NCBI GenBank assembly: GCA_946699065.1
Contig: CAMPDV010000007.1
Location: 496,001 to 560,000, forward strand
Length of the DNA stretch: 64,000 nucleotides
Source: Loxodes magnus
Lineage: Eukaryota; Ciliophora; Karyorelictea; Loxodida; Loxodidae
Reading direction: 5' to 3'
The notes under the pieces are model-generated. The model searched no databases. It saw only the letters and a list, made by a program, of their open reading frames with translations, and was not told where the DNA came from. Shown piece after piece: positions 4,894 through 52,257 of the stretch (positions are counted from its first letter, which is position 1; every line of letters starts with the position of its first letter). The position numbers were made by a program, and so were the translations under genes.

Positions 4894-7800
4894 TCAAAAT
4901 ATATAACAATTTCTTGAACTTCCACATCCACAAAAATTTTGATTTTATCTTCTTGGACTTTGATTAAAATAATCTATTTACAAAGATCCTCTTAAATTTC
5001 CGACTGCTTCTTGTTCCTATATTTAATTTGCTAGAAATTAAAGTTCTTTATGTATTTCATATCCTTCTTCTACTTAATTCAATACTAATTCTATTTACTC
5101 TCTTCTTTTAAGTTTTCTCAATGCTTTTATACTCACTTCGCATTAATTCTTCATAAATTTCTCGTATTATACTCTTAAATTATCTTTATATCCATTAAAT
5201 GGATTGTAAACTTTATAAGTATAACTCAAAGTTTCACCAAAAGAAATTTAGTTATATATTAATCTTCACGTATGTGAAAATTATTTTGGCTATTCTTCCA
5301 CTTAAATTTATTATTAAATAACATACGTATCTTAAGGTAATAAAGCAACTACTGTTTATTCATCTGTAAATCCTTCAAATTTTACTAATTTTATATTTTA
5401 AGGTCATTATTGATTTCCTATATTTTGTATTTCTCATTTTATTAATACTTTCTCTCCTGCGTAATGTTCCTGTACTTCTTAGATTTATTTTATATATACT
5501 TAAGGAAATTCTAAAATATTCAAGCATAAATGATATTATTCTGAAATATCAATTTAATTTTCTTTCAACACAAAAGTAGAGTTATAAATTTATTCTATAT
5601 GTCCTCTTAAATCTATTTATACTTAAACAACAGCTGATTAGTTTTATATTAATTATTACTAAATCTAGTAAGTTTATTAAGTTTCTTTTTGGTATAGATA
5701 AACATCTTATCTTTAAAAAGTATTTCCAATACTTATAATTTACCTAAAATAAAAAATTACATTTCTATTTGAATAATTTATCCATTATAAAATGATTAAT
5801 TGTTTTATTAGCAAAATATTTAATTTTAATTTTACTATAATTTTTTTATAAGTCTTTTTAGTTTAAATATATCTCCATTATTAATATTATTTTAATTTTC
5901 AATTGTTTGTCCATTTTCTATTTAATTTTATTTATCTAATTATTAAGTTTAAGAAGATTAGGAAATAATATGTTATTTATAATCTTTTTATTCACACTTA
6001 ATATTTAGATTATCTGTTGAATTATTTCTTTCTTTTCATTTTTTCTTTTCATTTCCTTTTAAACAATTTTCTCTTTATAAGTTTTCTATTAATAATTATT
6101 AGTCAAATAAAATTTAACTTTGATATTTATCCAATTCTTTTAAATCTTCAAGTTATTATAATATATTTGAAATAGGTGAATTAGACTCAGGAGATTAAAA
6201 TTTAGGGGAATAATCTTTACTTTATTCGTTGCTATTTAGCCTTTTCTTTATCGTTTAAATTAACTGATTAAGAGCTTAAGATGCTTAGTTTAGCCTATTT
6301 AGTGTTTATTCCGATTACTAATATCCAAAATGTTGTTCTAATTTTCTGTTATTTTGAGATTATTTAGAGAATCCTTAAATTTATGATATTAAATTTTATT
6401 TTTCGTTTTATAAATAATCTATTTTTTATTAGTATTCCTATTATAATATTTGAATATCTTACTTAATACTGTTTTATAGTTTTTCTATTTATTTTGTCAG
6501 ATTTTCATTTTATTTGTTTAATTATTAATTTTATTCATATTTCTAATTAAGTTTTGCTTTATTCTCGTCTATTTTTTATTTAAATTTATCATTTTCTAGT
6601 TATAAAACACTATTTAGTTCTTTTATTTTTTCATTTTATTAGCTTAGAAGATTAATTTCTTCCTTCAGTTAATTAATTTTATCTTCTTGCTATTTTATTT
6701 GAGTTTGTGCTTCAATATTTTATTTCTATATTACTTTTATTTAGTTTTATAACTCTTAAAATTATTTTTCCTTATTTTCATTTGCTTCATTTTAATTATT
6801 CTTAAGAATTTTTATTTACTAACGAAGTTCTTAATTAATTTAACTGAATTAATCTGTATCATTTTGTTAATGATTAAGTTTTTCTTTTTCTTCTTTAAGT
6901 TATTTTTTATAATCTGATATTTCAATTTCTTTTGATTCTGTTTATCTTTATAAATCATCAAGTTAACTTTAAATTTTATTTATCTAATCATCTTTTTATT
7001 ATAAGTCCTTTTTTAACTTTTCAACTATTTGCTGATTTTATGAGGAATTTATTAAAATTTCAGCTTAGTATTTTTGAATTGTTTGCTAGAATTAACTATT
7101 TTCAGCTTGAATTTTCTTAATAGTTTCTTATTGCTAATCATTTGTTTCTATTTTATTTGAATTTTATTAATCTTAATCTTTAATTTAGCTATTTAAACTA
7201 CTTATTAATTTTTCTTTTTATTTTATGGTTTATTCTAACTTCTTATTTGCATCTTCATATATTTTAGTTTGCTATTTTATTTTATTAAGTTATTATTCAA
7301 GATCCATTATTTCTAATTTATTTTCGTTTTATTCATTTTAAGATTAACTGTATAATGTTTACAAATTATTATATTTTAGCTGTAATTCTTCTAACTAAAG
7401 TTTAATTTTTTAACTTTCACTTTCTTAATTTTTTATTATTTTCTATTAATTTTTAATGTTTTCCTTAGCTTATTAAATTTGACTTTCTTTAGATTGAATT
7501 TCTTGCTATTTGGTCTCTATTATTTGCGTGTTTTTTTCTATTATTTATTGTAACTCTTGCTTTTCTTATAGTTATTTTAATTATAGTTAATTCTTTTCAT
7601 TAGCAAGATATTATATTTATTTTTGGTGTTCTTTTTAAAGATCTTCTACCTTTTATTCTTTAATTTTAAGTCTATCTTTTATTTTACTTATTTCAATTTC
7701 TTTTAATTATTAACTTTAATTTATTTTGCTTTTTAAATTTTCATTTTCTTTAGTAATTAAATTTAATACTAAAAGCTTTTGTTCATATCCTATTTTAATA

Positions 7801-10667
7801 TTTTAATGTTCGTCTATTTATTTTTTATATTATTCTATTTAGATTTCTAGCTTATTCTTGTTTTATTTTATATCTTCTTATTAATTTTAATTTTCTAAAT
7901 TATTTATTCTTTCCTATAATGAAATTTATTATTATTAGGCTTGATTTAGTTCTGCTTCCTTGTTTAAAAGTTTATTTTACAATTATTAAATGAATTACTA
8001 ATTTTCATTATTATTTTTCTATAATTATTATTTTTCTGTTTAGAAATTCTCTTATATCTACTTTATCTCATTTGAAAGAGACTATTATTACTTTTGTTAT
8101 TCCTTTTTTAGATTTTCTATTTCTTTCTCTTAGGTCTTAAGCTTATCTTAAAATTAAATTACTTAATTATCTTTTACCTAAATATCTTATTTAAGTTATT
8201 ATATTAAATTTTCATTTTATTTAGTTATTTAATTTAAAACTTAAAGCTTTTACTCATAATCCATTTTAATATTTTAATATTCAGATTACTTGCTTTAGTA
8301 TTCTTTTACCTAAATTTCTTCTTTCTTATATTTTTATGCGTTTTCTTCTAATTAAGACTTTAATTAAGTATTCTAATCTTCTAAAAGTTTTGTTCTTTCT
8401 TATTCTATTTTTTATTATTAAAATTAACTTTTAACTTCATCTAATTCCCTTTCTTTGAGCTAAAGTTGATTTTGCAATTAGTTTATTGTTAATTAGTTTT
8501 CATTTTTAATTTCATTTACAATTTAATTTTCATTTTGGTTGCTTTGCTTGAATTAGTTATTCTCGTTTAGAAGAGATTAAATTTGTAAAGTTTATTCTTT
8601 TTTAAGATTATCTAGTTCTTATTCCTTTTTTTTAAGCTAATCTTTAATTTTGTTTATTTCAATTTCTCTTTAAGCAGCTGTTTGTTATAAAAGATTTTTT
8701 TCAACTTGAAAATTGCTGAGATTTTGATTTAGCCTTTTAATATTCTAATCTTTATTCTAATTAAATAGTTGAGTTTCTTTTAATTCTTTCAAATTCTAAT
8801 TTAATGCTTCTTATATCTATAGTTTCTATTTTTCACTTTATTCTTGATTATTTTTTAGCTCTTCTATTTGATTTAGTAATCCTGTTTATTTTTCCTAGTA
8901 ATCTTAAATAATCTAATTAATAGATTTTTCTTTTTATAGCATGATTTTTTTAATTTCCATATTTTCTTATTATAAATCTTTATTATTTGTTTATAATTAT
9001 TTTATTTCTTACTAGCTGCTCTAAAGTTGCTGCTGAACTGAAATTTGCAATTACTAAATGAAACTATTGCTTTATTACAATTAATTTTCGTATTACTATT
9101 TTTATTGTACATTTTCTTTAGATATATTTAGTACTTATTCTGCTTAATTTTGCTTATCTCTTTGTAAAATTTCCTACTAAGCTTTCAATTAGTTCTATAT
9201 TTAAAATAGATTTTCTTCTTTTTGACTTAGAGATAATTGAAGGGTTTTATTTTACTCTTAAGTTTAGCTTATTTAGTTTCTTAGAATAAACTAAATTTTC
9301 TCAGTTTCTTAAAGGTTTCCTTTAAGCTCTTCTAATTGTTTTTATTTTTTCTAAAGTTCTTGATTACTATAGTTTATTTAATTCTTCTAATTTAAATTTT
9401 CTTAATTAAGATATTAAATTTGATTTTCTTTAGATTAGATATCTTGCTAAATAACTTCTATTACTTATAAGTTCTTTTCTATTATTTTTTGTAGCTCTTA
9501 TTTTTCTTCTTACTATTTTAATTATAGTTAATTTTTCTCATTTATAAGATATTATAATTGCTTTTGCTATTCTTTTTGAAGGCTTTCTTTTTCTTGTTCG
9601 TTAATTCTAAGTTTATCATTTAGTGAATTTATTACGCTATCATATTAAACTACTGATGAATTTAGATTAGCTTCTTTTTTCTAGATTTCTATTGATAAAT
9701 ATTCGATTTGCTATTTTAGTTAGAAGTTTTCTTATTGAAATGCTTAAAGATACTAAATTTATTCTTACTATTTCTAAATATGTATTTGCATTTCATTTAT
9801 TTTCTAGCTAAATTAATTTATGATCAATTACTCTTTTGGATCTGGTTAAGGTTAAAAACCATTATTTGTCCTATCTACATAATCTTTCTCTGGGGGGTAT
9901 TTCGGTGGTTAATCTTCTTAATTACTATATTTTGTATTATCTTAAAGTGTATCTTACTTTTTTTATTAAAAAATAAGATTAAAATTTTTATTTTACTCTT
10001 AATCATTTTAGATTTCTTCTAAATAATGTTCTTTCAAAGCGTATATTATGCCAGGTTTTCTCGACTTATAAAATTATATCACTTTTTCTTGATCATGTTT
10101 ATAAATATTTGCTAATTTAAGAAGCACATTTTTCTCATTTTCATTTAATTCCATGTTTTTTGTAATTTTAACCTGGTCCTTATTGAAATAAGCTAGCAAT
10201 TGAAGTAATTTTCCTTAGAACTCATCTAATTACTTCATTCTTTAACATTATTATTCCATTTCTGCTAAACTTTATTGGTAATTCTCTTCTTTAGAGCTTA
10301 TTTTTAGATTTCTATCTAGGACATCTAAGTCCCATTATGCTTGTTTGGTTAAATCATAATCAGACCTGGATTCCAATATTTTCATTGGCTTTTCTCTATC
10401 TCTTATTTCTTATAAAATATTGAATAATCTTTCAGTCTTTTCATTTAAATCTTCAAGATCAGACCTGGTAATTTTATTGATTTCAGGTGAATTTTAACAA
10501 ATCTTAAAGATAATATTTTGGCATCTATTAGAGATTATTTAATAAATCGAGTATTATATTTCTGGCTGACTACATAGAGTCATTAATTTTTAAAGTGATT
10601 ACAAGCTGCCACTAAACTTTCCTTCTTAGCTCATAGTTTAGAAATTATTTTGAATATCCTGCGACAT
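4894..10667 (-). CDS. Giant Gln-rich coiled-coil protein with C-terminal FW (NBR1-like) domains and CaaX box
   Basis: With TAA/TAG=Gln and TGA=Trp the minus strand from ATG 10667 to TGA 4894 is one 1918-residue frame, interrupted only by a 17-nt GT...AG intron at 5744-5760. Residues 1-220 form a domain (contains RSDYDLTKQAQWDLDVL) shared with the neighbouring paralog. About 1400 residues of Gln/Glu/Lys/Asn heptad-rich coiled coil follow. The C-terminus holds an FW-like domain split by the intron, then a canonical FW domain (VLIKWEIQNIGNQQWPQN; second Trp pair in HTWRL; TLSYTYKVYNPF). The tail ends in Cys-Tyr-Ile-Phe just before TGA, a CaaX prenylation box. Inference: a lipid-anchored scaffold; FW domains in NBR1 relatives bind partner proteins. 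In-frame TGAs fall on conserved FW Trps, and the total coding length is an exact multiple of three after intron removal. Confidence 0.85.
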
Positions 10668-13532
10668 TTTAATTATAGATAAAGGAAAAATTTAGGTTAA
10701 ATACTTGTTTTTTAAGAAAATCAATTTTCTTGATTTGAATTTTCATATTTTAAATAGCTAGTATCTAGATATCTATCTATCTACATTCACTAATACATTT
10801 AAATTTTAAGGTTAAGCCTATTTAATAATTTCATATACTTCTAATTTTTTATCTTATTTTAACTTTAGTATCTTTAGTTATTATTACTTATTCTTTATTT
10901 TCAACTCTTTTAAAGTCTATTATAAATTTTCAGAGAGTTAAAATTAAAATAAGCGAAAGAAAATGAGAAAATCAGCTTAAATATAAGTATATTTCTAGAA
11001 TTAATTTAAATTAAAAGTATCATGCAGTTTAGATATTTTTATCTTATCTCAGATTCTTATACTAAACTTAACTCTAAGTAACTAAAAACACTTAACTTAG
11101 AATTAATATATGGCTTGCTTATATTAGCTAGATTTAAATTATTCATTTTAGCATTTTTAGATAAGTTATTTAAAATAAAATTTAAGATATTTAAAATATA
11201 AAAATACTTTATATTTTAGAATTAAAAATAAATTATTTAATAGAGAAGGATATGCATTGCTCAGTCCTTTTAAAACAAAATAAATTATAATAAATTTATA
11301 GAATTAAGGATTTCCTGGATCTTTAAGTTACCAAGTTTTATAAAAATGTTTAAAATATTAAATTTTGTAGATTTTTAATTTATTCATAGCAAATGTCTAA
11401 GAATTATTTTATTTTTTTAAATAGACAGAGTTTACTTAGATGAGACATAGCTAAATTATATAAAAATTTAATTAAAGAAAAATAGAAAACCATTTTAAAA
11501 GTTATTAGGGAGGTAGAATTTAGTTTAAGAAAAAATTCATTAATGAGAAGTATTTATAGTTCATAATTTTCATATTTTGCTCTAAAATTTCTTCTATTAA
11601 GTTTGAAAAATTCTTAATGCAATGACTGAAATTTCGAACTAGCTTAAATATATGAATTCAGTAGAAAAATATTATCAAAGAAATTCATTCTATGGCAATA
11701 AGAATTTGATGATTTAGACTACCACTTTATTTTGCTAATTTTCATAGATTATAAAAAATTTGATGAGAGCAAATTAATTTGCTCTTTTTATGAATGCATA
11801 TGAAGATTCAAAACTTTTATTACCTTTTTTTAAAATTTTAGAAATGAAAGTTTTATTGTTGAATAGCTAATGAAACTAAGCAGCAGAAAGAAATCATGAT
11901 TCAATAAAATTTTAGAATATCTATGATTATTAATACTCTTGTTGTAAATATAAGAGTAAAATCTGCTGCACTAATATAAAGTTAAAAACTAATTTAAGCC
12001 TGCTTTCATCCAAAAGCAATCTATATCTATTTATCAAACGAATGATAATTTAAGTTTCCTAAAATAAAATAGCTTTTAATTAGTTATATCTCATTTATAT
12101 ATTTCATACAAATAATTGCGTAGTGTAAATCACTTAATATAATTATAAAGAACTAATAAGTTAAATTTATAAATTTTTTAATTTCTTTGGTTCTCCTTTT
12201 TCTTAAGAGATGAAGAATCATAAATTATAATATAAAATATTTTTAATAAAAGTAATAAATCTATTTAAAGCTAACTAAATTATAATGAGCTTACTATTTT
12301 TTAAAATCCTTTATTTTATGATTTATAAACTTAGTAATTTTATGAGGATAAACAAAAAGATAAATTTTATATAGAGTCTATAATAAAAATTATAGCTCTT
12401 TTATACTTTAACTTTTTCTTTATGATTGTTAATTTAAAATTAGCTAAAACTCATCAAAAATTAATAATAATAAAATATTAAAACTTCTATATTTTCCCTT
12501 CAATTTTAGTTATAAATTAATAATTTAATACAACTTTTCTAAATTAAAATTGTAGAATGTATCAGCTAGTTTATTTAAAATGCATATAAGCTTTAAATAA
12601 TAAATAGTAAATTAAATTTACATCAAATATTTATTTAAAAAATAGTTAAAATGCTTTAATTTATCTAATATACTTGCAATGAATCTAAATTAAATAATAA
12701 AATAAACAAATATCTATTATTAACTACTAAAGTTTCCTGCCTTCTTTATAATGAAGAAATTAAATCAACTATTTTATATTATTTCTTTAAGTTATATAAT
12801 AATTATCTCTTCCATATAAGCTTTTTATCTCTTATTTATTTAGTTTATTGGAGGTTGAATAATATCCTCAATTTAGGAATTGTTGATATTGTTACTACGT
12901 TAGCCTCTTTTTTATATTTTATACAATAGACTTTAATATAATTTTATCATTCAGTTTATCATAAAAAGCTGATTATATCAATTTTACTAGCAAACTATAA
13001 AATATGATCTTTTGCACTACATAAATAAATCTCAAAAACGTGAATAGACTTAAAACAAGTTTTTAGTGAATTATAGTTATAATATATTAATTAAAGTAAA
13101 TAATTATTCTTTTAATTATTACTAAATTATTAAAACTTAATTTAATCTCCATCATCTATTACTCTATAATTATCCCCAATTATCCTATTATTTTCAAATC
13201 TTTTATTTTATGTTTAAATTAATAATATAATCTTAGATGCTACAAAGCTCTTTAATTATTCAATTTTTAGACTAGTAAATAAAAACAGTCATGTTCTATT
13301 CTTTAATAAAACTGAAAAAAGATATAATAGAGAGTTTTTTATACAGTTTATTTTAAGTTGCTATTTTATTAAGCATCTTTTATAAAATTTTTAATTTATG
13401 CAAATCTTGATTGCTTTAGAATTATCTTAATAAATACATAGTTATAGCTTTGCTATTTTTAAAATATAGAGATGATATTTATTAAGTTTATAGCAAATTT
13501 TAACTTAAGTTTTAAAATGATTTTAAAGTTAT
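10668..13532. other. AT-rich intergenic stretch
   Basis: Lies between two same-strand paralogs. I looked for a remnant of the FW module missing from the upstream paralog and found none. No other gene or repeat is recognised. Confidence 0.4.
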
Positions 13533-21185: not shown

Positions 21186-22945
<1,760 letters not shown>

Positions 22946-27550: not shown

Positions 27551-28845
27551 TCAGAAAATCAAACAATTCCCAGATGGTTTACCTTTCTTGTTTAGATCTA
27601 AAGCTTTCTATTTTAAAATCTTCTTAAGCTATTTATAACTAAAAATACTACTATTTGTTTATAAAATAACATCAACTAGATTATCGATTCCTAAATGGTT
27701 AGATCATCCTTCCTTTGCAAACTTTTAAAACAGCAAAATATCATCTCTTTTTTTCAATTTTTTGAATATTTTTGCTTCGTCATTATTTAGTTTCTTAATG
27801 AATATTTTATATTCAAATTTTAAAGGATCATTTAAACTAATAAAAGGATTTTCAACATTATAAGCATAAAACATACTTCCAAAAGTTGTATCATCAACTC
27901 TCAGATCTCAGGTATGCCTATATTTACCCGGTTTTCATTCTATCTTTAAAGTTAAATAAGGCTAGCAAGATTAATTAGGCATCAAAGATTAAATATTTAT
28001 CTTTTCTTTAAACTGATCTGTTTACACTATGCTTATATTATCTGGCCATTATTCTTATCCTACGTTTTAGATATTTCATTCTATTTTTTCCTTTTAGTCA
28101 GCAATATGCTCTTAAACATCTTCAACAAAGTTTATACAAACTTATGGTAATTTTTTAACATAAAAACTTAGTTTTAACTCATTTGAAATCTATATTTTTT
28201 TATCCAAAACAATTACAAAAGTTTAATTATATTGACTCTCTTGGAATTTTGTCAAATCTAGTTAAATTTTTAATAAAGAAAAAGATTTTTATACAATTGG
28301 ATCGCTGATTTAATGAAATTTTTAAGCTTCTTTTTAGTAAATACTGATTTAACTAGGTGCTCATATCGAATTTCCTGTATTCGTAGTTTTGCTAAATAAA
28401 GGCTTACAATTAAAATTCCTTTTTCGAGTCACAATAGAGATAGTTAAAGTTTTGGTTACATTCTATTTAACCCTGAATAATTTCTTACTTGATATTAATT
28501 TTAATTTTCTATTACTTATGACTAATTAACTCTCTCTTATAATAAATAAAAAGCTTTGCAATTATTATATTTTTCTATCTCCATTTCTAGTTTCTAGGTA
28601 AATTTCCCATAGAATTTATCACTTTGGCCATTTATTTTGCAATCCTAAAAAGATTTCAAAATACTTTATGAATAATTGATTTTCTTTTTTTCCTTAAGTT
28701 ATTAGCTTATTTCTTAAAACTACTGATATATTTGCTAATTTTTATCTTAAGCCTTTTTCTTTTACTCGCCTAGTATTCCTTACATGAAGTTAAAGCCTTG
28801 CTGAAATTAGTTAAGAATGTCTGGGTTAATTTAAAGGTTAGACAT
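27551..28845 (-). CDS. FW (NBR1-like) domain protein with CaaX box
   Basis: 420 aa from ATG 28845 to TGA 27551 after two 16-nt introns. Residues 1-119 are a Gln/Lys-rich helical segment. Residues 120-225 form an FW-like domain (TTNTGNSIWAPSQISIYQKE). About 235-330 is a canonical FW domain: IEWNIQNVGQEQWPDN, IEWKPGKYRHTWDLRVDD, FGSMFYAYNVENPF. The C-terminal 90 residues (FQKFAKEGWSNHLGIDNLVD) align with the 31-kb paralog. It ends GNCLIF directly before TGA, a CaaX box with Phe at the last position, which favours prenylation. Several FW tryptophans are encoded by TGA and others by TGG. Divergently oriented to its closest relative at 31322. Confidence 0.88.
28392..28407 (-). other. 16-nt intron, FW-domain position
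   Basis: GTAAGCCTTTATTTAG on the minus strand. It sits just before the Phe/Met-Lys/Gln-Ile strand of the first FW-like domain, the same position as introns of 17, 18, 18 and 19 nt in the four paralogs. Confidence 0.8.
28473..28488 (-). other. 16-nt intron, coil/FW boundary
   Basis: GTAAGAAATTATTCAG on the minus strand, at the junction between the N-terminal coil and the FW module. Same position and length as in the paralogs at 31700, 42214 and 51326. Confidence 0.8.
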
Positions 28846-31321: not shown

Positions 31322-32639
31322 ATGGATCTAATGACGTAAAGTTATTAAGATCTAACTCGATCCTAAATTGAAAGCTCGTTATAGAAATTCTAGGAAAGAT
31401 TAGACTTAATAAAAATAAATAAAGATTAAGAATAATAAAATGAAAACAAATAACTTAACTAGATAGAAACAGAAACATATAATTTAAACGGAATCAACTT
31501 TAAGGAAATTATTACTTGATAAATCAAAAGCTAGATTTAAAATCCTAATTTATAATAGTTATCTGCTTAAGTCTTAGTAAAGCAAATTTAGGATTTGAAT
31601 CAAAAAAATATTCAATTACAACAGCTTAAACAAACTTGGGATTAATAAATAAAATAATAAGAAATTGAATAATTAAAAATGTATAGTTAACAATATAAAG
31701 TAAGTCATTATTCAGGGAAGGCTTGAATGAATTTAAAGCAAATAATAAGTTTATAGAGGATAAAAAGTAGAATTAGAATTGTAAGTTTATTATTTTAGTA
31801 AAATCACAAATTTAGGAGAAATTGCATTAGCACCAAATTTAATTAGTATTTACTAGAAAGAAAGTTAAACTTTTCATCGATTTAATGAAGTTTTAAATAA
31901 AAATTAGTCGCAGATAATTAAAATTCAAATAGATTTAACGTAACACAATAACGATTAATACATTCAAACATTCTCACTTTAACTAAAAGAACAAACAATT
32001 ATTTCAGACGAGTGCGCTATATATTTAGATACTTTACCTTTACCTAAAGTTGCTATCAAATAATTTCTTGACTGGCAAGAGCATTTTGCAGAGGAAAAAG
32101 TTATTATCAAATGAGAAGTTAAAAACACTGGAAAATAACCCTGACCTTAAAATACAAATCTAGTAAGTTTAGATAATTTTACAAAACCAATTTTTGTTGG
32201 AATTATGCAAATAAATTAAATATCCCTTATTATTTGCGAAATCATAACAGAATGAAATAATGGAAAATATTCTCATTAATGGTAACTTCAAGTAGATAAT
32301 ATTTTTTTTGGAGATATTTTGACTTATAGCTACAACATCAATAATCCGTTCAAGGATTAAAATGATCCATTGAGAATCGAGTGATAATATTTCTTAAACA
32401 GTTTAAATGAAATTTAGAGAGAGTAAGTAAAAAGACTTAAAAAGAGAAAAGATATTGAATACTTTTAGAAATTTGCGAAAGATGGATGAGCTAAACATTT
32501 AGGATATGAAGCATTAGTGGAAGCTATTATGCTTTAGAATGGGAGTTCTAAATATGAAGATTATGAAAATACCTTAAAAAAATCTGCTAAGGATAAAGGT
32601 TTATCTACATCACCAAGTGAAAAATGCAATATTTTTTGA
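31322..32639 (+). CDS. FW (NBR1-like) domain protein with CaaX box
   Basis: 427 aa from ATG 31322 (a second in-frame ATG lies 9 nt downstream) to TGA 32637-32639, with introns of 16 and 18 nt. Residues 1-125 are Gln-rich coiled coil. Next comes an FW-like domain (LEWIQSKQQVYRGQ...ITNLGEIAL...ISIYQKE), then an FW domain at about 238-331: VIIKWEVKNTGKQPWPQN, ITEWNNGKYSHQWQLQVD, FGDILTYSYNINNPF. The tail (FQKFAKDGWAKHLGYEALVE) matches the 27.5-kb and 40.7-kb paralogs, and the protein ends EKCNIF before TGA. The Trp of KWEV, the first Trp of PWP and the Trp of TEWN are all TGA. No RING or known N-terminal domain. Confidence 0.9.
31700..31715 (+). other. 16-nt intron, coil/FW boundary
   Basis: GTAAGTCATTATTCAG; positional homologue of introns in three paralogs. 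Confidence 0.85.
31781..31798 (+). other. 18-nt intron inside first FW-like domain
   Basis: GTAAGTTTATTATTTTAG. Its length is a multiple of three, so the frame stays open either way. Comparison with paralogs carrying 17- and 19-nt versions at the same place shows that it is spliced. Confidence 0.8.
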
Positions 32640-40719: not shown

Positions 40720-43159
40720 ATGGATTAAAGGGGCTGAAGTTTCTAATAAGCTTGTGCTTGTGGAAAGTAATATAGTACTTCGGATTGTCCTATTTTTATG
40801 TCAATTTGCAATCATATTATTTGCTACGAATGCCTATAGAAAAAAAAGATAAATTAAGCTTGATATTGCATTTGTGGAAGATAATTATAATAAAATGAAA
40901 TTGAATAAAAGAAAATACCTCTAGCTTCTATTAAAGAAATTAAATAAGAAAACTACAACAACTGACAATATAATGAGCCCGTAAATTAGTAACCTAATAC
41001 AGAGAAGTAATGACAATTTAACTAAGCTATTCCTAAACCATTATTATAATAGTATTAATAATAAAACTTCTATTCACCTTAATAATAACCAGGTAATTAC
41101 GAATTTTCTTTTTAATAAAACTCTTTTAACTAGCAAAATATTAATGCTTACGGAAACTATGCTAATCCAGTACCCTTTGCTTAATAAAACTAAATAACGA
41201 ATTTGTAACTGCATAGAGATATTTAACCTTAGCCTTAAGCATAGTTGTATAACTTTAACCCTAATCAAGCATATTAGCGAAACTCTATTGATTAGATATA
41301 ATTTTAAAATCCTTTGGTTATAAATTAAAATATTAGCAAATTTTAGTAGAATCAAGAGAAGTTTCAGTAAAGCACTTTAATTTAGCATTAGAACACAGAG
41401 AAAATGCTTTGTCCATGCTGTTAAAGTGACTATAATATTTCCTAAAATATTCCTCTAATTCTCTCATGTTATCATAATATATGTAGAGATTGTGCATTTT
41501 AATCTATTAGAAAACATAAAATTATTAAATGTTATCATTGTGGACACGAAACGAAGAAAGAAAGTGAAGAACTTCTGGAATTAATAGATCATGAAAAAGC
41601 TTAAAAAGTAAAAGCCGAAGAATAAAGCAAAAAAAAGCTAAAAGATTAACTAATTGAGCAAATAAAAATCCATACTTAAAATAACAAAAATTGAAAATAA
41701 GAACTTATTAACCTTAAAAAAAACTTAAAAGAAAAACTAAAATATATAAGCATAATTATTGAGGAAAAATATAATCAGCTAATTAAAAATATTTTAGCAT
41801 TTAAGCAATAGTAACTAAAGCAAAGTAGCATTCAAATAATTGAAGATTTAAAGAGAGTAGAATAGTAAATGGACATTATTAAGTCGTCTGAAGTATTTAA
41901 TTTTATAGAAAATTAGTTGTAAGAGCGAAGTTTAGGTGAAATAAAAAATATATTGTAGTAATTAAATTTAATTACTAGCTAAAAAATTGAAAATTTAGAA
42001 TAACAAGAAAACATTTAAAATACTGAAATAACTGACAATTTCAAAAAATACTAAATGTAAATAGAAGATTAATGATGTTTAAATTGCGGAAGAGAAAGAT
42101 TAAACATTAAGAATTTATAATAAAAATAAGAACTAAAGGAGAAAAATTATGAAAGCAAAGTATAAATTTTAGAAAAATAAGTTGAACAATTAATAGCATA
42201 GACTTAATATAAAGTAAGTTATTATTCAGGGAAAACTAGAATGGATTAAAAAAGATTAATGATTATTTAGAGGATAAAAAGTAGAATTAGAATTGTAAGT
42301 TTATTATTTTAGTAAAATCACAAATTTAGGAGAATTAACATGAACACCAGATAAAATTAGTATTTACTAACAAGAAAATAAAACTTTTCATCAAATTAGT
42401 GAATCTTTATAATAGAATCAATCATTAATAGTAAAAATTATATAAGATCTTGAAGGTTACAATGAAAAATATTATATTTAAACTTTTATTATTTAGTTAA
42501 ACTAACGAAATAATATTTCGAACGAATCTATTATAAATCTTGAAACTATTCCTTTACCTAAAGTTGCTATCAAGTAGTTTCTTGATATATAAGAGCATTT
42601 TGCAGAGGAAAAAGTTAAAATTAAATGAAAAATAAAAAATATTGGAGAATAATAGTGACCTTCTGATACTAAGTTAGTAAGCTTGGATAACTTAGGAAAA
42701 ACTTCTAATGTTGGAGTCCTTTAGCCAAATTAATCTTTAAAAATTCCTTATGAAATTCAAGTAGAATGAAATGAAGGATAATACTCACATAAATGGCAAT
42801 TTTACGTATGTAATATACCTTTTGGAGAAATTTTAACTTACACTTATAATATTTATAATTCGTTTATTTAAAGAAATGATCCACTTAGAAAATAATATAT
42901 TGAGGCTTTTTATAACCTAAGCGAAAAAGAAAAAAAAACAATAAGGAGACTAAAGTCATATGCTTAGATTTCTTAATTTCAGAAATTTGCGAAAGATGGC
43001 TGATCTAAGGCTATTGGAAATAAAGCTTTAGTTGATAACATTTTGTTAAAAAGTCCGAGCACACAACTGGATGATGTTGAAAGTTTTTTAATAAAATATA
43101 CGAAAGATAATGGCTTAAAAGTTCCTTCAAGCAAAGATAAACTATGCTATATCTTTTAA
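40720..43159 (+). CDS. Double-RING, coiled-coil, FW-domain protein with CaaX box
   Basis: 801 aa from ATG 40720 to TAA 43157-43159, with 16- and 18-nt introns. RING-like finger 1: Cys12, Cys14, Cys30, His32, Cys35, Cys38, Cys50, Cys52. A Gln/Pro/Asn-rich linker follows (about 90-225). RING-like finger 2: Cys231, Cys233 or Cys234, Cys250, His252, Cys255, Cys258, Cys271, Cys274. Coiled coil fills about 280-490. Then come an FW-like domain (FRGQKVELE...LTWTPDKISIYQQE) and a canonical FW domain (IKNIGEQQWPSDTKLVSLDN, VEWNEGQYSHKWQFYV). It ends DKLCYIF. Two RING fingers suggest an E3 ubiquitin ligase; together with FW and a lipid anchor this suggests a membrane-tethered adaptor. If the TAA were read as Gln, the protein would run 143 codons further. 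Confidence 0.87.
42214..42229 (+). other. 16-nt intron, coil/FW boundary
   Basis: GTAAGTTATTATTCAG, after a Gln-Tyr-Lys sequence shared with the 31-kb paralog. Confidence 0.85.
42295..42312 (+). other. 18-nt intron inside first FW-like domain
   Basis: GTAAGTTTATTATTTTAG, identical to the intron at 31781. Confidence 0.8.
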
Positions 43160-43684
43160 CACTTATTTACTTATTATTTTCATAGAGTTAATAATATATT
43201 TAATAAGATAAGTTACCGGTTTTCTCTCCTGCCTTAAGAAAAGTATTATTAAAATCCTTCTTTCAGCTTTTTTTATTTTTTCTTATTTCTATTAAACTTA
43301 AAAATTTTTCATTAACAATAAAAAATGATATAGCTTTTATTTTTATTTTTCTTAGACTTATATTTATGCATAGAAATATAAGATTTACTTTTTAGCGCTA
43401 TAAAAAGAGTTTCATTATATGAACTAAAACTTTAAAAATCTAAATAAAATATGAATATCATTTAGACATTTACTCAAATATTAAAAATAATCTTAAAAGA
43501 TTTTGAAGCTTTATTTAAATAATAATTTTTCGTAGAATTAATTCGACATCATGTGAATATAATTAAAATCTTCAAGATTATCATTTGAAACTAATTAATT
43601 TTAGCTAATTTTAAGCTAGGATCATCTTTAATTAGATGAAATATTTCCTCAAATCAAAGACAGTAAAAGTTTTATATTTATTGC

Positions 43685-45240: not shown

Positions 45241-45944
45241 TCAAAGAGTCTAAAGTTTAAAATTGTCTTAAGTGTTGTTCCATTTCCAATCTTCTTCTGA
45301 GTCTTCTTCTTAGAATACAAATCTTGCATTACTCCATTCATCCTCTTTTTTATTACAGGTATCTTGCTTCAACCATGTTCAATTCCAAGCATATTCAAAT
45401 TTCTTATTTATAGAGAAAATACGATGTCCTTCAGGAGTTCATTTCTTATGTACGTCTTTTTTCTGTATAGAAAACCTTCTGGAATTCAGTTAAAAATTTA
45501 TGGATCTCCATAGCTTAAAACTTTCAATTTTTATTTTTATTAGAATTTTCAGCAATATCTTAAAATGCGACATATATCCTGCAATACAGCATTAATTTCT
45601 ATTCTTTAATATCGGAATTTTGCTGGTTGAGGAATCGGTTCTACATTCTTGGGGCTATTTGCTGTTGTATTTTTTAGAAATAAACTTTCAGTCAATTCCG
45701 ATAATTGATTGAATTTGGATTCTATTTATTCAATTCTCAGATTGACTGTCTTGTAATTTTCATTTTGTATATTTTTTATTTTAGGTATTAAGTATGAGAT
45801 TTTGCCTTCAAGCTCTTATACGCTTCTTAAAAGTTTAAAATTCTCCTATTACAAAGCTTTTAGTTCTTAGAGTTTATTTTGCTAATCGTACTTTGATTAG
45901 GATGGATCCTGTTTAGAAGAGACTTTTTGCAAGAAATGTTCCAT
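45241..45944 (-). CDS. Hypothetical coiled-coil protein with Trp-rich C-terminus
   Basis: ATG 45944 starts MEHFLQKVSSKQDPSQSKYD, followed by a coiled coil to about residue 95. A globular region (IEINAVLQDICRILRYCWKF, VLSYGDPQIFNWIPE) and a Trp-rich acidic end (RIFSINKKFEYAWNWTWLKQ, EEDSEEDWKWNN) come next, before TGA at 45241. The last two parts are in different frames. A 20-nt intron starting GTTTTCTATACAG and ending AAAAAAG would join them (227 aa); one missing A in the A6 run is the alternative (234 aa). Five Trp in the C-terminal region come from both TGA and TGG. No family is recognised. Confidence 0.65.
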
Positions 45945-46069
45945 TTTTAACATATATAATATTTAAATAAAATAAATTATTTCTAATTACTTAACTATCT
46001 TTATTTGATCCTTAAATTGTCATAAAATAACTCCAAAGAAAATTAAATGAGCACATTAAAGAAACTATT

Positions 46070-46409
46070 AAAAATAATTATAATATTTAATATTAAGAAA
46101 ATGTTCTCATGTTTCTTGTTAAAATTCTAGAGGTCCGATGAGTCATGTCAGCTTCTCCAAATGGGGAATCTTCTTATTAAAAATTATTCTTAAATCTTGA
46201 GTCAAATGTTTCAGTCTTCTAAAATAAGGTCCAAATAAGAGATAGTTATTAAGTCGGTAGTTAGAAGGCCCGTCAGTCAAACTTTCATACCGCTAGAGAG
46301 AACCCTCGGGGTAAGTTAGGTATGTCTCAACGGAGCTTATCCACCCTTCCCCGTGGTGGTATCCTGCACCAGATTACCTACTAGTTTGGCTGGCACGGCC
46401 GACATCCAT
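46070..46409 (-). repeat. Dispersed ~120-aa-ORF repeat, copy
   Basis: From ATG 46409 the start MDVGRASQTSR matches the 33-kb copy. A deletion removes the segment around the AV-YTAL block, and later frame changes break the ORF (readable pieces: RYESLTDGPS, FGEAD-like block in another frame). The terminal GGTGCTACGC motif is missing or very diverged. Confidence 0.6.
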
Positions 46410-46849
46410 TTTATATATAATAATAAATTATTTACTTATCTTAATCAAATTTTCAGTTTATTTTAGTTTATAACTTTAAATTTATGATTTTTACTTGAAT
46501 TAAAGCTACATTCATTTTATTTGAATTAAAATTTTATACTAAATCAGTTAATTAGCCTTTTTACTACCAATTTCAGTAAATTTTTTAGGTAGTATTTTTT
46601 TTATATAAAATATTCTATTACTAAACAACCACTAATTTCTTACCAAATTTATGATTGAAATTTTTATTTTAAACTAAATTTCAATAATTGATTAATTTAT
46701 TTTATTTTAGTATGAAAAATCAATTTAATTAAATTATTGCTTTTATCAAAAGCATTATTTTTTAGTTTAGCGATACAATAAATAATAGATTAAATATTTT
46801 CACACTTCAGAAGATAATTATTTTAAAATAATTTCTATCAATTTCTCAT
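46410..46849. other. AT-rich spacer
   Basis: Nothing recognised. Confidence 0.4.
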
Positions 46850-47265
46850 TTATTTTACTTTCTTACTATTATAAGTCTTGCATAGATTTTTGAAATCTTT
46901 CAAGTATGTATTCTTTATTTTAATATGATCTTTCTTCAATCCAGTTTATCTCCTATTATAATCGGCTTGTGAATTTCGTTTATATTCATCATTATTTAAA
47001 ATAATTCCATGCTCGAAAATTTCTTTCTTCTATAGTTTTCCTTCAGAAGCATAGTAAATTTTATATAAAATTAAGTTGCTTTAATTTCTCTAATCTTTTT
47101 TCTCTCTAAAAGTTGCATTTTTTGTTTAGTAGCCTACTTTCTTACAGTATCAGAATCTCCACGATCTTTCCTTTTCTAGTAAAAGTAGGAATTTTAGGTT
47201 CAGAAGCATAGATTAAATAAAATTTATTGATTTTTTATCTTTTATAGTTTAATAAAACTGCCATA
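46850..47265 (-). CDS. Possible hypothetical gene with apparent frameshifts
   Basis: Minus-strand pieces look coding: MAVLLNYKRQKINKFYLIYA from an ATG near 47265, then KGKDRGDSDTVRKQATKQKM, then YYASEGKLQKKEIFEHGIIL and DYNRRQTGLKKDHIKIKN to a TGA. The pieces lie in shifted frames, with no canonical tiny intron visible between them. It may be a decayed gene or contain unusual introns. No domain is recognised. Confidence 0.35.
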
Positions 47266-47489
47266 GGGCAAAATATAATTTAAATATATAATTTCTTTAT
47301 AAATTCAAATTGTTTAATTTTGTTATTTGATGCTGTGATTCTATTAAATAAAGTTCGCTTAAGATTATTTTTAGAATTAAGTTTTAGATTTGAGAAAAAT
47401 CTTATTAAATATTGTTTATTTATTAATAAAAGTTTAAAATTAAAATATATAATTTTAATTTATATAAATCAGTAAAAAATCAATAAATG

Positions 47490-47892
47490 CGATTATAGAG
47501 CGCGTTGCCTCTCGTTGGAGTGCAACCTTTCCAGCACTAATGTTTAATGTTAAAAAAATGTTCTATTACTTCTTGTTGACATTCTATTCGTCTAATGAGT
47601 CACGTTAGCTTCTCCAAATAGGGAAACTGCTTATTAAAAATTATTCTTAAATCTTGAACAAAATTCTCGAGTCTTCTTGAATAAGATCCAAATAAGAATT
47701 AGTAATTAAGTCGTTAGTAGGTCCGTCGGTTAACCATTCATACTGCTAGAGAAAACTCTCTGGCAAGTTATGCTTCCTCATCCGAGCTTATCTACCCTTC
47801 AAAGTGGTGGCATCTAGTGCAAGAATACTTACAATGCAGTATACACTGCACCTTATTGCCTACTAATTCTCTTACCCGCAACCTACATTCAT
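47490..47892 (-). repeat. Dispersed ~120-aa-ORF repeat, copy
   Basis: Aligned over its whole length with the 33-kb copy, from an ATG at 47892 (MNVG...) to the terminal motif (reverse complement contains GGCAACGCGCTCTATAATC). Several indels disrupt the frame. It is followed after about 40 bp by a zinc-knuckle gag-like copy on the same strand. Confidence 0.65.
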
Positions 47893-47934
47893 ATTTTTAT
47901 AATAATAATAATATTAATTTTAGGTTTTCCGTTT

Positions 47935-48857
47935 TAGGGATTTCCAACCCTGTCAGGAGGACAGCAGTTCGGGCTCCCTGCTGTTAAATATAATTGTTTG
48001 GGACGTCCAATTTTAGCGAGATTGGGAACTCGGGTTTTTCCAGATTTTCCCTCCTTTAACTTGCCTTTGTTCCATCTTAATCTTGTATATTGAACTATCC
48101 AGGATGCAATACATTATTTTCATTATTGCTTCTTCTTTTTTCTTTTTTTGTTGTTCATTTATCCGATAGTTTCTTATTTCTATTAGAATTTCTAACACTT
48201 CCGATAAAAATGTCAAACGCTTCCACAGCAGAAACATTTCTTTTTTATTTTGAATTATTTTCCTTGATTTGTTTTCTCTTTCTAGGCTTCGATTTCCATT
48301 TGTATAGCTCCAGTTTCGCTTTACTCTTTCTTAAAATTTTACAATTTCTCTTCTACTTTTCCGAGTCTGTTATCCAGTTCAGTCTGTTTCTAAAGCTATT
48401 TTAGGATTCGTTAGTCTGACTTTGTGAGATATTCCAAAAGGCGTTAAGATCTCTTTCCTAGAACATAAGTCTTGACTCAATTCCTTCTGCTAGGTCTAGC
48501 TTTGCCATCAGCATATCATTGTCCTTCTTCAATCTCTTGACCTCTTCCTGGAGGTTCAGTACCACTTTGATGAGCTACTCTATGCTCATCTGGCCAGAAG
48601 GGTTGAACTCTGATACCTCCTGGTGGAGAACATATTTCATCTGTTTCCTCGGTTTCTCGCTTGAGATTGAAGTTTCCGTGTGTATATTCTTCAAGGTTGG
48701 CTTTCGTTCGTTTTGTTATATTCCAAGTTGTTAGTTCAGTTTTGGTTAAGGTTGTGATAGAGAAGATTGTTAATATTATTAAGACTTGGTTTCTTGCTTC
48801 CTCCCTTCTTTTTTGCTTAGGAAGAGGTGGTATAGAAGCCTGACTTGAAACCTTCAA
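47935..48857 (-). pseudogene. Zinc-knuckle gag-like gene, copy with frameshifts
   Basis: From ATG 48857: MKVSSQASIPPLPKQKRREE, then LTTWNITKRTKANLEEYT. The frame then moves to MKYVLHQEVSEFNPSGQMS and a coiled coil (LNLQEEVKRLKKDNDMLM, RDLNAFWNISQSQ), then to QTELDNRLGKVEEKL and a CX2CX4HX4C zinc knuckle (CFCCGSVWHFYRKC). The order N-terminal Pro/Lys part, coil and zinc knuckle is that of retroelement gag or LINE ORF1 nucleocapsid-like proteins. The same blocks occur at 59 and 53 kb. In this code the knuckle's Trp is TGA. At least two frame changes mark it as decayed or containing sequence errors. Confidence 0.6.
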
Positions 48858-49156
48858 ATTTTTTTTTCATTCATATTTTTATTAACATAATATTTAACCT
48901 TATAGAATATAAAATAATGAAGTATTAAATTAAACTAAAAGTAGAATAAGAAATATTAATAAATTCTAGATATTTAAATAAAAAGAAAACTTTATTCTTA
49001 ATTTAAATCTAATTAATATAATTATTTATTTAAAGTCAAATGGAACTGCATTATTTTATACTGTCTATTCATTTATTTTAATACACTTCTTTTTTTATTT
49101 TCTAAAAGAATGTTTTTAATTCTTCAACGAATATCTTTTATTTAATAATTGAGAAA
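48858..49156. other. AT-rich spacer
   Basis: Upstream of the 1021-aa FW gene; no element recognised. Confidence 0.4.
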
Positions 49157-52100
49157 ATGTAAGAAAATAATGATAAGACTAACTTTACTTAAAATTTATA
49201 ATAAAATTATTTTAATATATACCAGGAAATAAACTCATAGGAAAAATGTGAAAGAGATAAGTAAGGAAATTCAAAAGAATAAAATGAAATATACTTATTG
49301 AATTTATCTCTAAATTAGACAAATTAAAATTCTTTGCTTTAGATAGATTTAAATAAGGATAATGTAGAAGCAAAATAAGTGAATTAAGAAAATGAAATGT
49401 GATAAAGTTAAAATTAAATTCCTAATTTTGATATCAATGATTTAAATCCATTAAACCGAAATTAAGATCAATTAGCTTTATAAGAAGCTGATTAAATAGA
49501 GCTGAGAAACTTGGATTAATAATTCCAAAACATATTTTAATAAAAAGACTAAAAATTCATATAATTTCCATAATAAGAAAGAAACAAAATTTTGTAAGAA
49601 AACGAAATGAAATAGACCCTTTACTATTTCAATTATAAAGATTAGGATTTTTATATGAAAAACTAATAAATAAATTAAATGCCTGAAGATATATAAAGTT
49701 TATCATAAAATCAAGAAAGTCTAGTTGAATTAGAAAAAAATGAATAATTAAAAAAAATATTTATTTAACAATAAAACGAAATTGATCATCTAAAGCGAAG
49801 CATTAATTAAAAATAAAATATTATAGATTAAGGATAATATTTAAATTAAGAATTATAAAACTATATTTAAGCATTACAAACTGAAAAAAAAGAATAAATT
49901 TTATAATAAAATGCATAAAAATAGAGAAATTTCTAAAATATAATTGAGTAAATGCAAAAAGAAGGAATAACAACTAAAAATATATACGCTGATTAAGTAC
50001 AGAAAAATAATTATATAGAAGAAAAAATAAAAGATAAGTTATAAGATGAAAAAGAACAATTATAAACAACTATATGCTAATAAAATAGCTAAATTAAATA
50101 TATGGATAATAAAATACAGTTACTTGAAAAAGAATTATAAGATGGTTCAAGAGGAAATTAAAGAAACTAAGAAATATAATCACTTGAGTTATAAGAAATT
50201 CAATTAAAAAAATAAAATGAAAGTCTAATATTTTAGCTAAGTTAATTATAGATTCAATATCAAATAAGTTAAGATAAAATTTAATAATATAAGCAGACAA
50301 TAGAGGAAAATAAGGAAAAGATATTGTAACTAGAAAAAGAAATCCAGAACTATTAAAATTAATTAAAAAAAGAATATTAAAAATGTTAAAAAAATATTGA
50401 GTTCCAAGAATCTAACTCTTAATAAATAAAATAAAAAAGTTAAGAATAAAATGGAAAAATTAGAAATTTCTCAGTAGATATTGCTTAAAATATTTAGAAA
50501 AATTAAGAAATATAAAAGCCTGAAAATATTTTATAAAACGAATAATATAATCTACAAGATTAAATATAAAACCTGAAATAAAATAACTAAATATTTAATT
50601 AGTAAGCTAATATGAATGAATAAAAATATCAGCAATAAATAAGTGACTTAAATGAGAAAATTTTAAAATTATAATCAGAAAAAAATAGTCAGAATTTAGA
50701 TTTAATGCAAGAGAATTTTTAACTGAAAGAACTTAATAAAATTTTAAATGAGCAATTAATTTAGACAAAGTAAGATTTTTTAATTAAAGAATAAGAATTT
50801 TGAAATAAGTAAGAAGAAATTTTAACTGAATCTAACGATAACAAAACTGTAAATGAAAGTTTTAATATCATTGAAATAGATTAAAACATAAGCTCATAGA
50901 TCCTTTAAGAAAACTTAAGTTTTTCAGAAGAAAGTGGTATAGAATAAAAACTGCTAAATTTGGAAATTCATAATTTCTCTGAAACTTTAAGCAAAATTAT
51001 AAGAATATAAGAAAAAACTATAACATAATTTAGAAAAGATGAGAATCTAATTATAAAATAAGAATCTACATAAAACGAATAAATAATTGATATAGTTAAG
51101 AATTAGTTGGATGTTATAAAAGAATCTTAGTTGACTTTTAGTTAAATAATAATAGATTAATAGAATCAAATAGGTAAACTTAAGGAATAAAATCGAACAT
51201 CTTTGGAAATAATGAAATAAGAACACGATTAATATAAAATGTCGAGTGAAAACTAAATAAGAGTCTAGCAATCTTAAATAGAGACTCTATAAGGCAATTT
51301 TTTAAAGTTTGAAAATTTGTATAAAGTAAGTTATAATTTAGGGAAAGCTAGAATGTCTTCAAAATAATTGTATTTTTTTCAAAGGGGGAAAAATAAATAT
51401 TATCTTGTAATTTTTTTATTATTAGTAAAATAAATAATATTGGAGAGTTAGATTGGCAAAATTCTGTAAGTTTACATTAAAAAGAGGCTAATAAGTACTA
51501 TTAAATTAAAAAAAATATTATAAAATATTAATAATATGAAATGAAAATTGAAATAGATTTAACTGAGTATAATGAGTCTTTGTGGGTACAAAATTTTATT
51601 CTAAAATTAAACAAATAAATTGACATTTCTTAAGAATCTAAAGTAGTATTAAATATTTAAAAGTAACCCTTAGTAGAGATAAAGTAGAGATAAGAAGTTA
51701 AAACCCATTTAAGCTAAGAATAAATAACAGTTTAGTGAGAAATAGAAAATTTAGGAGAATAATCGCTACCATAAAATACAGTTTTAGCTAGTATTGATAA
51801 TTTCACAAAAGATATTTAAATTTGTGGAATAAAGCCAAAACAAATTCTGCTTTTAAACTTTACTCTTGAAGTAGAAAAATAAGCGGGCAAATACTCTCAC
51901 TAATGACAACTAAAAGTTGATTAAGTTGTTTTCGGTAAAGTTTTAACTTATTCTTATGATATTTATAATCCCTTTAGTGGCAATGACGATTTTTTAAGAT
52001 CTTGAACTTTTAATTGTTTAAAATAAATGAGCTAAATAAACTAATAGAAGTTTAAAAAACTTTAAAAAAGAAGTTAATTAATTTAGTTTAAAAAACAAGT

Positions 52101-52257
52101 GGAAGAGGGTTAGGATCTAAAAACTGATATAGAAAATTTAGTAAATATGATTATAAATCAAGAAGAGGAAAAGCATATCTAGAGTTTGGTTGATCAGCCA
52201 GTTCCATCTCAAAATAAATATGTATGTGGTGAATGCAAAGAATGTCTAATTTTTTAA
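49157..52257 (+). CDS. Long Gln-rich coiled-coil protein with FW domains and CaaX box
   Basis: 1021 aa from ATG 49157 to TAA 52255-52257 after 16- and 19-nt introns. Residues 1-720 are Gln/Glu/Lys/Asn-rich coiled coil, with Gln mostly encoded by TAA. The FW-like domain has INNIGELDWQNSVSLHQKE. The second FW domain is diverged: VQWEIENLGEQSLPQNTVLA lacks the Trp of the WP pair, but KYSHQWQLKVDQVVFGKVL and TYSYDIYNPF are kept. The Cys-rich tail YVCGECKECLIF ends in a CaaX box, with extra cysteines that could be palmitoylated. The start is the first in-frame ATG with protein-like codons after it. If TAA were Gln, only 30 more codons would follow to TGA 52345. It resembles the 4.9-kb gene in architecture but has a different N-terminus. 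Confidence 0.85.
51326..51341 (+). other. 16-nt intron, coil/FW boundary
   Basis: GTAAGTTATAATTTAG; positional homologue of the introns at 31700 and 42214. Confidence 0.85.
51407..51425 (+). other. 19-nt intron inside first FW-like domain
   Basis: GTAATTTTTTTATTATTAG. Left in, it shifts the frame by one; removed, it gives IFKINNIGE, matching FKITNLGE in the paralogs. Confidence 0.85.

What the first reader, a model, noticed from the sequence alone, without database searches (positions are those of the whole stretch)
4894..52257. All three stop codons are sense codons, and TAA as well as TGA also terminates: proof from a conserved CaaX box
Seen: TAA/TAG occur at Gln-type positions and TGA at invariant Trp positions (kinase DxWSCG; FW-domain KWE and PWP). 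Five paralogs end with Cys-x-Ile-Phe immediately before a stop. In three (4894, 27551, 32639) that codon is TGA; in two (43159, 52257) it is TAA. A CaaX box works only at the very C-terminus, so TAA must terminate there although hundreds of other TAAs in the same genes are read as Gln. This separates a fully ambiguous Condylostoma-type code from one in which only TGA stops.
Basis: partly seen in the sequence, partly recalled or inferred. Interest (0 to 1): 0.9.

Follow-up and report, generated by a model that had tools for sequence, protein, structure and literature searches.

The report
UAA doubles as minority stop codon
In a ciliate that appears to be Loxodes magnus, the codon UAA normally means glutamine but also seems to end a minority of genes, just after a tail motif that must be the last thing in the protein; its genetic code would then be more ambiguous than the standard table says, though the codon UAG does not look like a stop.

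Summary
Five FW-domain (PF16158) paralogs end Cys-x-Ile-Phe; the next codon is TGA in three and TAA in two. The genome (705.7 Mb) matches the Loxodes magnus macronuclear assembly (706 Mbp), for which UGA is published as the only stop. I read tails elsewhere in it: FW paralogs, 40 Ras/Rab proteins, 20 housekeeping genes. Of 93 ends that could be placed, 82 are TGA and 11 TAA (9 after collapsing copies); three TAA ends are Ras/Rab prenylation tails. All 19 placed housekeeping ends are TGA. After TAA the next in-frame TGA is 63-426 nt away or was not reached, in UTR-like sequence. So TAA very likely ends a minority of genes. The "Condylostoma-type" half fails: TAG was never seen as the sole end and is read inside tails two or three codons before TGA. 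Unexpected: 7 of 9 terminal TAAs are followed by C, against 8% of coding TAAs and 2 of 82 terminal TGAs. I recall, but could not read, a 2022 suggestion of rare UAA stops in karyorelicts. No RNA or ribosome data were available.

The parts
43157..43159 (+). terminal TAA directly after CYIF; next in-frame TGA 43586-43588; first TGA in any frame 166 nt further on; no GT in the 20 nt before it
43145..43156 (+). C-terminal CYIF (CaaX-type) box
42230..43156 (+). last exon of the 43159 gene with the FW (N_BRCA1_IG) domain
42214..42229 (+). 16-nt intron GTAAGTTATTATTCAG (inferred from the frame change; same place in the 32639 paralog at 31700-31715)
40732..42213 (+). upstream exon as called by the coding model, Cys-rich start (gene start not determined)
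52255..52257 (+). terminal TAA directly after CLIF; next in-frame TGA 52345-52347
52243..52254 (+). C-terminal CLIF box
51655..52254 (+). FW-domain tail of the 52257 gene
32637..32639 (+). terminal TGA after CNIF
32037..32636 (+). FW-domain tail with CNIF box
27551..27553 (-). terminal TGA after CLIF
27554..28153 (-). FW-domain tail with CLIF box
4894..4896 (-). terminal TGA after CYIF
4897..5496 (-). FW-domain tail with CYIF box
22160..22162 (-). in-frame TGA read as the Trp of the kinase DIWSCG motif

Best explanation
The organism (very probably Loxodes magnus) uses the karyorelict ambiguous code (UAA and UAG = Gln, UGA = Trp or stop), and in addition UAA ends a minority of genes. SHOWN by sequence: prenylation-type C-terminal motifs are followed at once by TGA or, in about one placed end in ten of a non-random sample, by TAA; the sequence after the TAA looks like UTR. 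INFERRED: deep inside an mRNA the UAA-reading tRNA-Gln wins; close to the poly(A) tail the release factor eRF1 wins, as proposed for Condylostoma and Parduczia by Swart et al. 2016. UAG may escape because two tRNAs-Gln (anticodons UUA and CUA) could read it but only one reads UAA (general knowledge of wobble, not tested here). A C at +4 and the T-rich run after it accompany terminal UAAs and may favour release there, but cannot suffice, because UAAC and UAACUU/UAACUC are not avoided inside coding sequence.
For: (1) 93 placed ends: 82 TGA, 11 TAA (9 after collapsing L041-L043); by class FW 28 TGA/8 TAA, Ras/Rab 35/3, housekeeping 19/0. (2) TAA and TGA stand at the same place in related tails: Rab CNC-TGA (L080) and CNC-TAA (L093); FW 32639 TGA and 43159 TAA; FW L051/L054 TGA and L056/L057 TAA (relatedness of the last pair judged by eye). 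(3) Next in-frame TGA after TAA: 63, 75, 87, 120, 141, 153 and 426 nt; none in the 197 nt read for L042 and L043, 71 nt for L093 and 17 nt for L104, against a published median 3'-UTR of 41 nt (PMC11441545, passages). (4) GC of up to 60 nt after TAA 15.7%, after TGA 17.7%; coding about 31%. (5) In the last 10 codons before TGA ends TAA 4, TAG 13 of 817 codons, against 104 and 49 of 3293 codons inside kinase and FW domains (Fisher p 8e-4); published transcripts show UAA and UGA, not UAG, depleted for about 20 codons before stops. (6) +4 C in 7 of 9 terminal TAAs against 219 of 2830 model-called coding TAAs (p 6e-7) and 2 of 82 terminal TGAs.
Against: No transcript, ribosome-profiling or peptide data were available. 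Published work calls UGA the only stop of L. magnus, and a 2019 survey found UGA as stop with UAR reassigned in karyorelicts. An unsupervised gene model on 264 kb plus eight short loci recovered ATG starts and TGA ends (69 of 241) but only 0.4 TAA ends; a four-base version on 314 kb gave 67 TGA of 360 and about 0.3 TAA. It also missed the two TAA ends of the window, so it is insensitive. TAA stands in frame 9 codons before the TGA stop in Rabs L075 and L099. The TAA-against-TAG contrast is not significant when the last 10 codons are compared with codons 11-20 (p 0.16). Three of nine TAA ends (L056, L093, L104) could lie in a 17-25 nt GT...AG intron, and the frame of L104 rests on introns inferred by similarity. 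Most boxes outside the 14 full-length FW matches were recognised by eye next to a stop, and the counting script accepted only TGA or TAA. The +4 pattern was noticed after the fact on nine cases.
Confidence: 0.85

Rival explanations
1. Only UGA stops. The TAA copies are stop-lost genes in which TGA mutated to TAA; they are read through as Gln and are decaying or make longer proteins.
For: G to A is likely the commonest change in so AT-rich a genome (window 22% GC; mutation bias itself not measured), so stop-lost genes would often show TAA. The FW family is large, with many segmental copies (122 matches). All 19 placed housekeeping ends are TGA. Five fetched tails (L062, L063, L097, L105, L111) could not be placed and might hide other stop-lost codons.
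Against: In the 14 full-length FW tails outside the window's own copies and in the 19 housekeeping ends, where the place of the end is set by alignment, no stop-lost codon other than TAA is seen. Ras/Rab genes with good domain matches are affected (L089, L093, L104). Near-identical copies L041-L043 keep box and TAA. The extension would be 21 aa or more of very AT-rich sequence and would bury the prenylation motif. Neither the UAA depletion before stops nor the +4 C is predicted.
Confidence: 0.08
2. Fully ambiguous Condylostoma-type code: UAA, UAG and UGA all terminate.
For: TAA and TGA both end genes. In Rabs L068 and L069 TAG sits where 14 other tails have TGA directly after CCK, and is followed by TGA.
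Against: No printed tail has TAG as its sole end; TAG is read within prenylation motifs two or three codons before TGA in L061, L067, L088 and L090. UAG is not depleted before stops in published transcripts.
Confidence: 0.05
3. The TAA lies in a short 3'-terminal intron (TAAC as a branch point) and the true stop is a TGA further on.
For: Introns here are short: 16-17 nt for those inferred, published mode 17. L056, L093 and L104 contain a GT...AG pair 17-25 nt apart around the TAA (read). TAAC followed by T resembles a branch point.
Against: 43159, L041-L043 and L046 have no GT in the 20 nt before TAA; 52257, L057 and L089 have a GT but no AG within 40 nt of it (read). The three introns inferred in the FW genes lack TAAC. 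Splicing would remove the prenylation motif.
Confidence: 0.02

Closest known systems
Karyorelict nuclear code (NCBI table 27), Loxodes magnus and Parduczia sp.
   Same: UAA and UAG = Gln, UGA = Trp inside and stop at the end; assembly size, short introns and UAA scarcity before stops agree with L. magnus (PMC11441545, passages)
   Different: The published description of L. magnus names UGA as the only stop; here TAA ends 11 of 93 placed genes. I recall that the abstract of Seah et al. 2022 (Peer Community J 2:e42) says a small minority of transcripts may use stop-UAA; that paper is not held
Condylostoma magnum code (Swart et al. 2016, PMC4967479; sections 9 and 11 and passages seen)
   Same: A codon is sense inside and stop near the mRNA 3' end; UAA stops exist
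   Different: Condylostoma also stops at UAG; TAG stops were not found here
Blastocrithidia code (PMC12153298, abstract and passages seen)
   Same: All three stops are sense codons; UAA is both sense and stop and is rare just before genuine stops
   Different: There UAA and UAG = Glu and UAA is the sole stop; here UGA is the main stop and UAA the minor one, = Gln

Membership tests
Karyorelict nuclear code (table 27) | UAA and UAG in frame within conserved coding sequence | tested here: met
of 136 kinase-domain matches listed, one row shows no in-frame stop (read by eye); 104 TAA and 49 TAG in 3293 domain codons.
Karyorelict nuclear code (table 27) | UGA = Trp inside | tested here: met
   TGA at the DIwSCG Trp of the window kinase and of L007, and at several FW Trp positions
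Karyorelict nuclear code (table 27) | UGA is a stop | tested here: met
   82 of 93 placed ends; TGA emerges unsupervised, 69 of 241 ends
Karyorelict nuclear code (table 27) | UGA is the only stop | tested here: not met
   TAA at 11 of 93 placed ends, 9 after collapsing copies; sequence evidence only
Loxodes magnus | assembly size and gene architecture | tested here: met
   705,730,643 bases against 706 Mbp; 16-17 nt introns against mode 17. rRNA identity not tested
Condylostoma-type code | UAA terminates | tested here: met
   sequence evidence only
Condylostoma-type code | UAG terminates | tested here: not met
   no tail with TAG as sole end among those printed; two undecided CCK-TAG-TGA tails (L068, L069) and five unplaced tails
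Context-dependent termination near poly(A) | stop lies within tens of nt of the poly(A) site | not testable with these tools
   no RNA data held
Protein prenylation CaaX box | Cys-aliphatic-aliphatic-X at the extreme C-terminus | tested here: met
   14 of 14 full-length FW matches outside the window's own copies have TGA or TAA directly after the box; prenylation itself not testable

The most novel reading that the evidence does not exclude
Loxodes reads UAA as a stop through an extended signal: UAA followed by C and a T-rich run (UAACUUU-type) near the mRNA 3' end, distinct from its UGA stops, which avoid C at +4. One organism would then have two stop signals of different length and context, one of them in the middle of being lost or regained.
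Probability: 0.3. Interest if true: 0.8.

Novelty: new variant of a known kind. Interest (0 to 1): 0.62.

Why it matters
The published gene predictor for Loxodes ends genes at UGA only, so the minority that ends in UAA (11 of 93 placed here, a non-random sample) would be mis-ended or given false extensions that hide their membrane anchors. The case also shows UAA and UAG, usually reassigned together, behaving differently as stops in one code, which bears directly on how eRF1 and suppressor tRNAs compete while a genetic code is changing. Table 27 would need UAA marked as a possible stop.

Tried and rejected
A first codon-usage gene finder drifted and was dropped. Unsupervised model with free start and end codons on 264 kb plus L001-L008, then 314 kb plus L001-L008: the first run recovers ATG and both recover TGA, but there is no power for TAA; many segments lie in repeats. 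Among 107 model segments of 120 codons or more on the 264 kb, 28 have TGA exactly at the model's coding end, 1 has TAA; segment ends are also introns. Avoidance of TAAC or TAACTT/TAACTC inside coding sequence was tested and not found. In-frame TAA within 60 nt after TGA ends was counted (64 of 82); by my estimate the noncoding TAA rate (7%) would give as much. Homologs of the FW tail in the large protein collection: none at E 0.001. No Rfam family at gathering score and no tRNA (bacterial-code ARAGORN) in the window. Pfam scan of 20 model-called pieces on the right flank was used only for orientation; an alignment of 42 such pieces was not used. A candidate TAA end in a RING gene at 93194 was left out because its C-terminus is not sharply defined. 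A whole-genome count of short degenerate tail patterns was judged too noisy and not run. dN/dS was not computed.

How the 93 were made: 94 tails were fetched (34 FW, 40 Ras/Rab, 20 housekeeping). Dropped before the count: L048 and L066 (copies of L047 and L051) and L062, L063, L097, L105, L111 (end not placed), leaving 87; added were the five window ends and one on the same contig at -12946. Seven of the 82 TGA ends have no prenylation motif and are not housekeeping: FW L047, L049, L050 and L052, taken as the first TGA after the domain, and Ras/Rab L077, L079, L086, which share a tail. The -70836 paralog (CKII-TGA) and six diverged FW tails on the contig were seen but not counted. L068/L069 are counted as TGA after CCK-TAG, L095 as TGA after CC-TAA-Asn; both leave the earlier codon undecided. 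In tails with introns, codons 11-20 upstream may include intron sequence.

Full report
WHAT IS THERE. The window is 22% GC and lies at G000:C7:496001-560000 of a genome of 705,730,643 bases in 7,843 contigs. The macronuclear assembly of the karyorelict ciliate Loxodes magnus is 706 Mbp, with introns of mode 17 nt and 3'-UTRs of median 41 nt (PMC11441545, passages seen). The introns inferred here are 16-17 nt. I take the organism to be L. magnus; rRNA was not checked.

THE FIVE PARALOGS. They share a domain matched by Pfam N_BRCA1_IG, three of five above the curated cut-off, and a tail whose last four residues are C-x-I-F in all five. Three are followed by TGA, two by TAA. In the two TAA-ended genes, as modelled, TAA occurs 70 and 124 times before the end. 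TGA serves as the Trp of the kinase DIWSCG motif and of several FW positions.

EXTENDING THE TEST. A search of the genome with the FW tail of the 43159 gene, without its stop, gave 122 matches. I read 34 tails. The cleanest subset is set by the alignment alone: besides the window's own 43159 and 32639 copies, 14 matches reach query residue 197-200, and all 14 have TGA (10) or TAA (4) directly after the four-residue box (in L044 and L046 one codon beyond the reported match end). Three of the four TAA tails are near-identical copies (L041-L043); the fourth is L046 (CKIY). Two further TAA ends turned up among partly matching relatives (L056 CLVF, L057 CGIF), where the box was recognised by eye. 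Outside the window on the same contig are another CYIF-TGA and a CKII-TGA paralog.

AN INDEPENDENT FAMILY. Ras/Rab proteins typically end in CC, CxC or CaaX motifs that must be C-terminal (general knowledge). Of 150 listed matches I read the tails of 40. 38 could be placed: 35 TGA, 3 TAA (L089 CLIF-TAA, L093 CNC-TAA, L104 CCN-TAA). L080 has CNC-TGA where L093 has CNC-TAA. L095 reads CC-TAA-Asn-TGA and L068/L069 read CCK-TAG-TGA; there the earlier codon cannot be assigned. L104 is the weakest: its frame rests on introns inferred by similarity to L083 and L094, and only 17 nt were read after the TAA.

A CONTROL SET. Thirty matches to histone H4, ribosomal proteins and two other core proteins were found; 20 ends were read and 19 placed, all TGA, from seven gene families with paralogs. 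The seven H4 matches each run past residue 103 and report one TGA inside, which fits a TGA stop, but their letters were not read.

THE COUNT. 93 placed ends: 82 TGA, 11 TAA; collapsing L041-L043 gives 9 TAA. By class: FW 28 TGA/8 TAA, Ras/Rab 35/3, housekeeping 19/0. The counting script accepted only TGA or TAA after each motif; that no other codon ends a tail rests on the alignment-set subsets above and on my reading of the printed tails, with seven tails left out (two copies, five unplaced; listed in Tried and rejected). The sample is not random. TAA ends are scattered among TGA-ended relatives, which suggests several changes between the two stops; no tree was built. The next in-frame TGA after TAA is at 63-426 nt where found, and up to 60 following nt are as AT-rich (15.7% GC) as after TGA ends (17.7%). 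For 43159 the first TGA in any frame is 166 nt further on, so a UGA-only code would leave that gene without a stop near its end.

WHY NOT TAG. TAG is read inside the prenylation motif in L061 (C-TAG-I-F-TGA), L067 (C-TAG-I-L-TGA), L088 (CC-TAG-Y-V-TGA) and L090 (C-TAG-C-TGA). In the last ten codons before TGA ends TAG is seen 13 times and TAA 4 times in 817 codons, although TAA is twice as common as TAG in conserved domains (104 against 49 of 3293; Fisher p 8e-4). Against codons 11-20 (25 TAA, 29 TAG of 631) the contrast is not significant (p 0.16), and in some Rabs TAA stands in frame 9 codons before TGA (L075, L099). The published L. magnus transcripts show depletion of UAA and UGA, but not UAG, for about 20 codons before the stop; the passages I saw do not explain the UAA part. 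A minority stop function of UAA would.

AN UNEXPECTED CONTEXT. The base after the terminal TAA is C in 7 of 9 cases (copies collapsed), against 219 of 2830 model-called coding TAAs (p 6e-7) and 2 of 82 terminal TGAs. Position +5 is T in 8 of 9 and +8 in 8 of 9. Inside coding sequence TAA is followed by C as often as other A-ending codons are (7.7%; CAA 7.5%, AAA 8.4%, GAA 7.7%), and TAA followed by CTT or CTC is not avoided (52 of 3038 against 239 of 13664 for other A-ending codons). So this context does not cause termination by itself. It was noticed after the fact on few cases. Restricting to the six ends that cannot sit in a short GT...AG intron (43159, 52257, L041, L046, L057, L089) leaves 4 of 6 (p about 0.0005-0.001).

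MECHANISM. Shown: position and identity of the terminal codons. Inferred: translation by suppressor tRNA is the default and eRF1 wins near the 3' end, the model of Swart et al. 2016 for Condylostoma and Parduczia (PMC4967479, sections 9 and 11 and passages read). UAG may be protected because two tRNAs can read it (wobble, general knowledge, untested).

AGAINST. Published work names UGA as the sole stop in L. magnus and a 2019 survey reports UGA as stop with UAR reassigned in karyorelicts (PMC6935857, passages); Swart et al. found UGA at the ends of all Parduczia transcripts they inspected. My unsupervised model found no TAA ends, but it also missed the two in the window. Stop-lost genes read through as Gln remain possible for single cases; the restriction to TAA where the end is set by alignment, the Ras/Rab cases and the UTR-like sequence downstream make this unlikely as a general account.

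PRIOR ART. I recall from memory the abstract of Seah et al. 2022 (Peer Community J 2:e42) stating that a small minority of karyorelict transcripts may use an ambiguous stop-UAA. The paper is not held. Searches of the held library listed no paper that, going by listings and the passages I read, demonstrates UAA stops in Loxodes.

Noticed in passing
terminal TAAs at 43159, 52257, L046, L056, L057, L093, L104: Terminal TAA is followed by C (mostly CT and then a T-rich run) in 7 of 9 cases with copies collapsed; terminal TGA is followed by C in 2 of 82.
   Followed up: partly
contig C7 around the window, window coordinates about -120000 to 52257: A large tandem cluster of FW-domain genes; 122 matches genome-wide, many on C7, C103, C282, C422, C180 and C348, with no homolog at E 0.001 in the protein collection.
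   Followed up: partly
L068, L069: Rab tails CCK-TAG-TGA: TAG stands where 14 other tails have TGA; TAG stop with a TGA backup, or Gln.
   Followed up: no
L095: Rab tail CC-TAA-Asn-TGA beside a relative (L103) with CC-Ser-Ile-TGA; undecided reading of TAA.
   Followed up: no
window coordinates 93194-93769, right of the window (L021, minus strand): RING-finger gene whose conserved end is followed by TAG and TAA but by no TGA in any frame for 178 nt.
   Followed up: partly
window 42214-42229 and 31700-31715: Paralogs share a nearly identical 16-nt intron (GTAAGTTATTATTCAG / GTAAGTCATTATTCAG) at the same place.
   Followed up: no
L105: A small-GTPase tail where one frame reads CCNC-TAA and the domain's own frame reads on to TAG-TGA; not resolved.
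   Followed up: no
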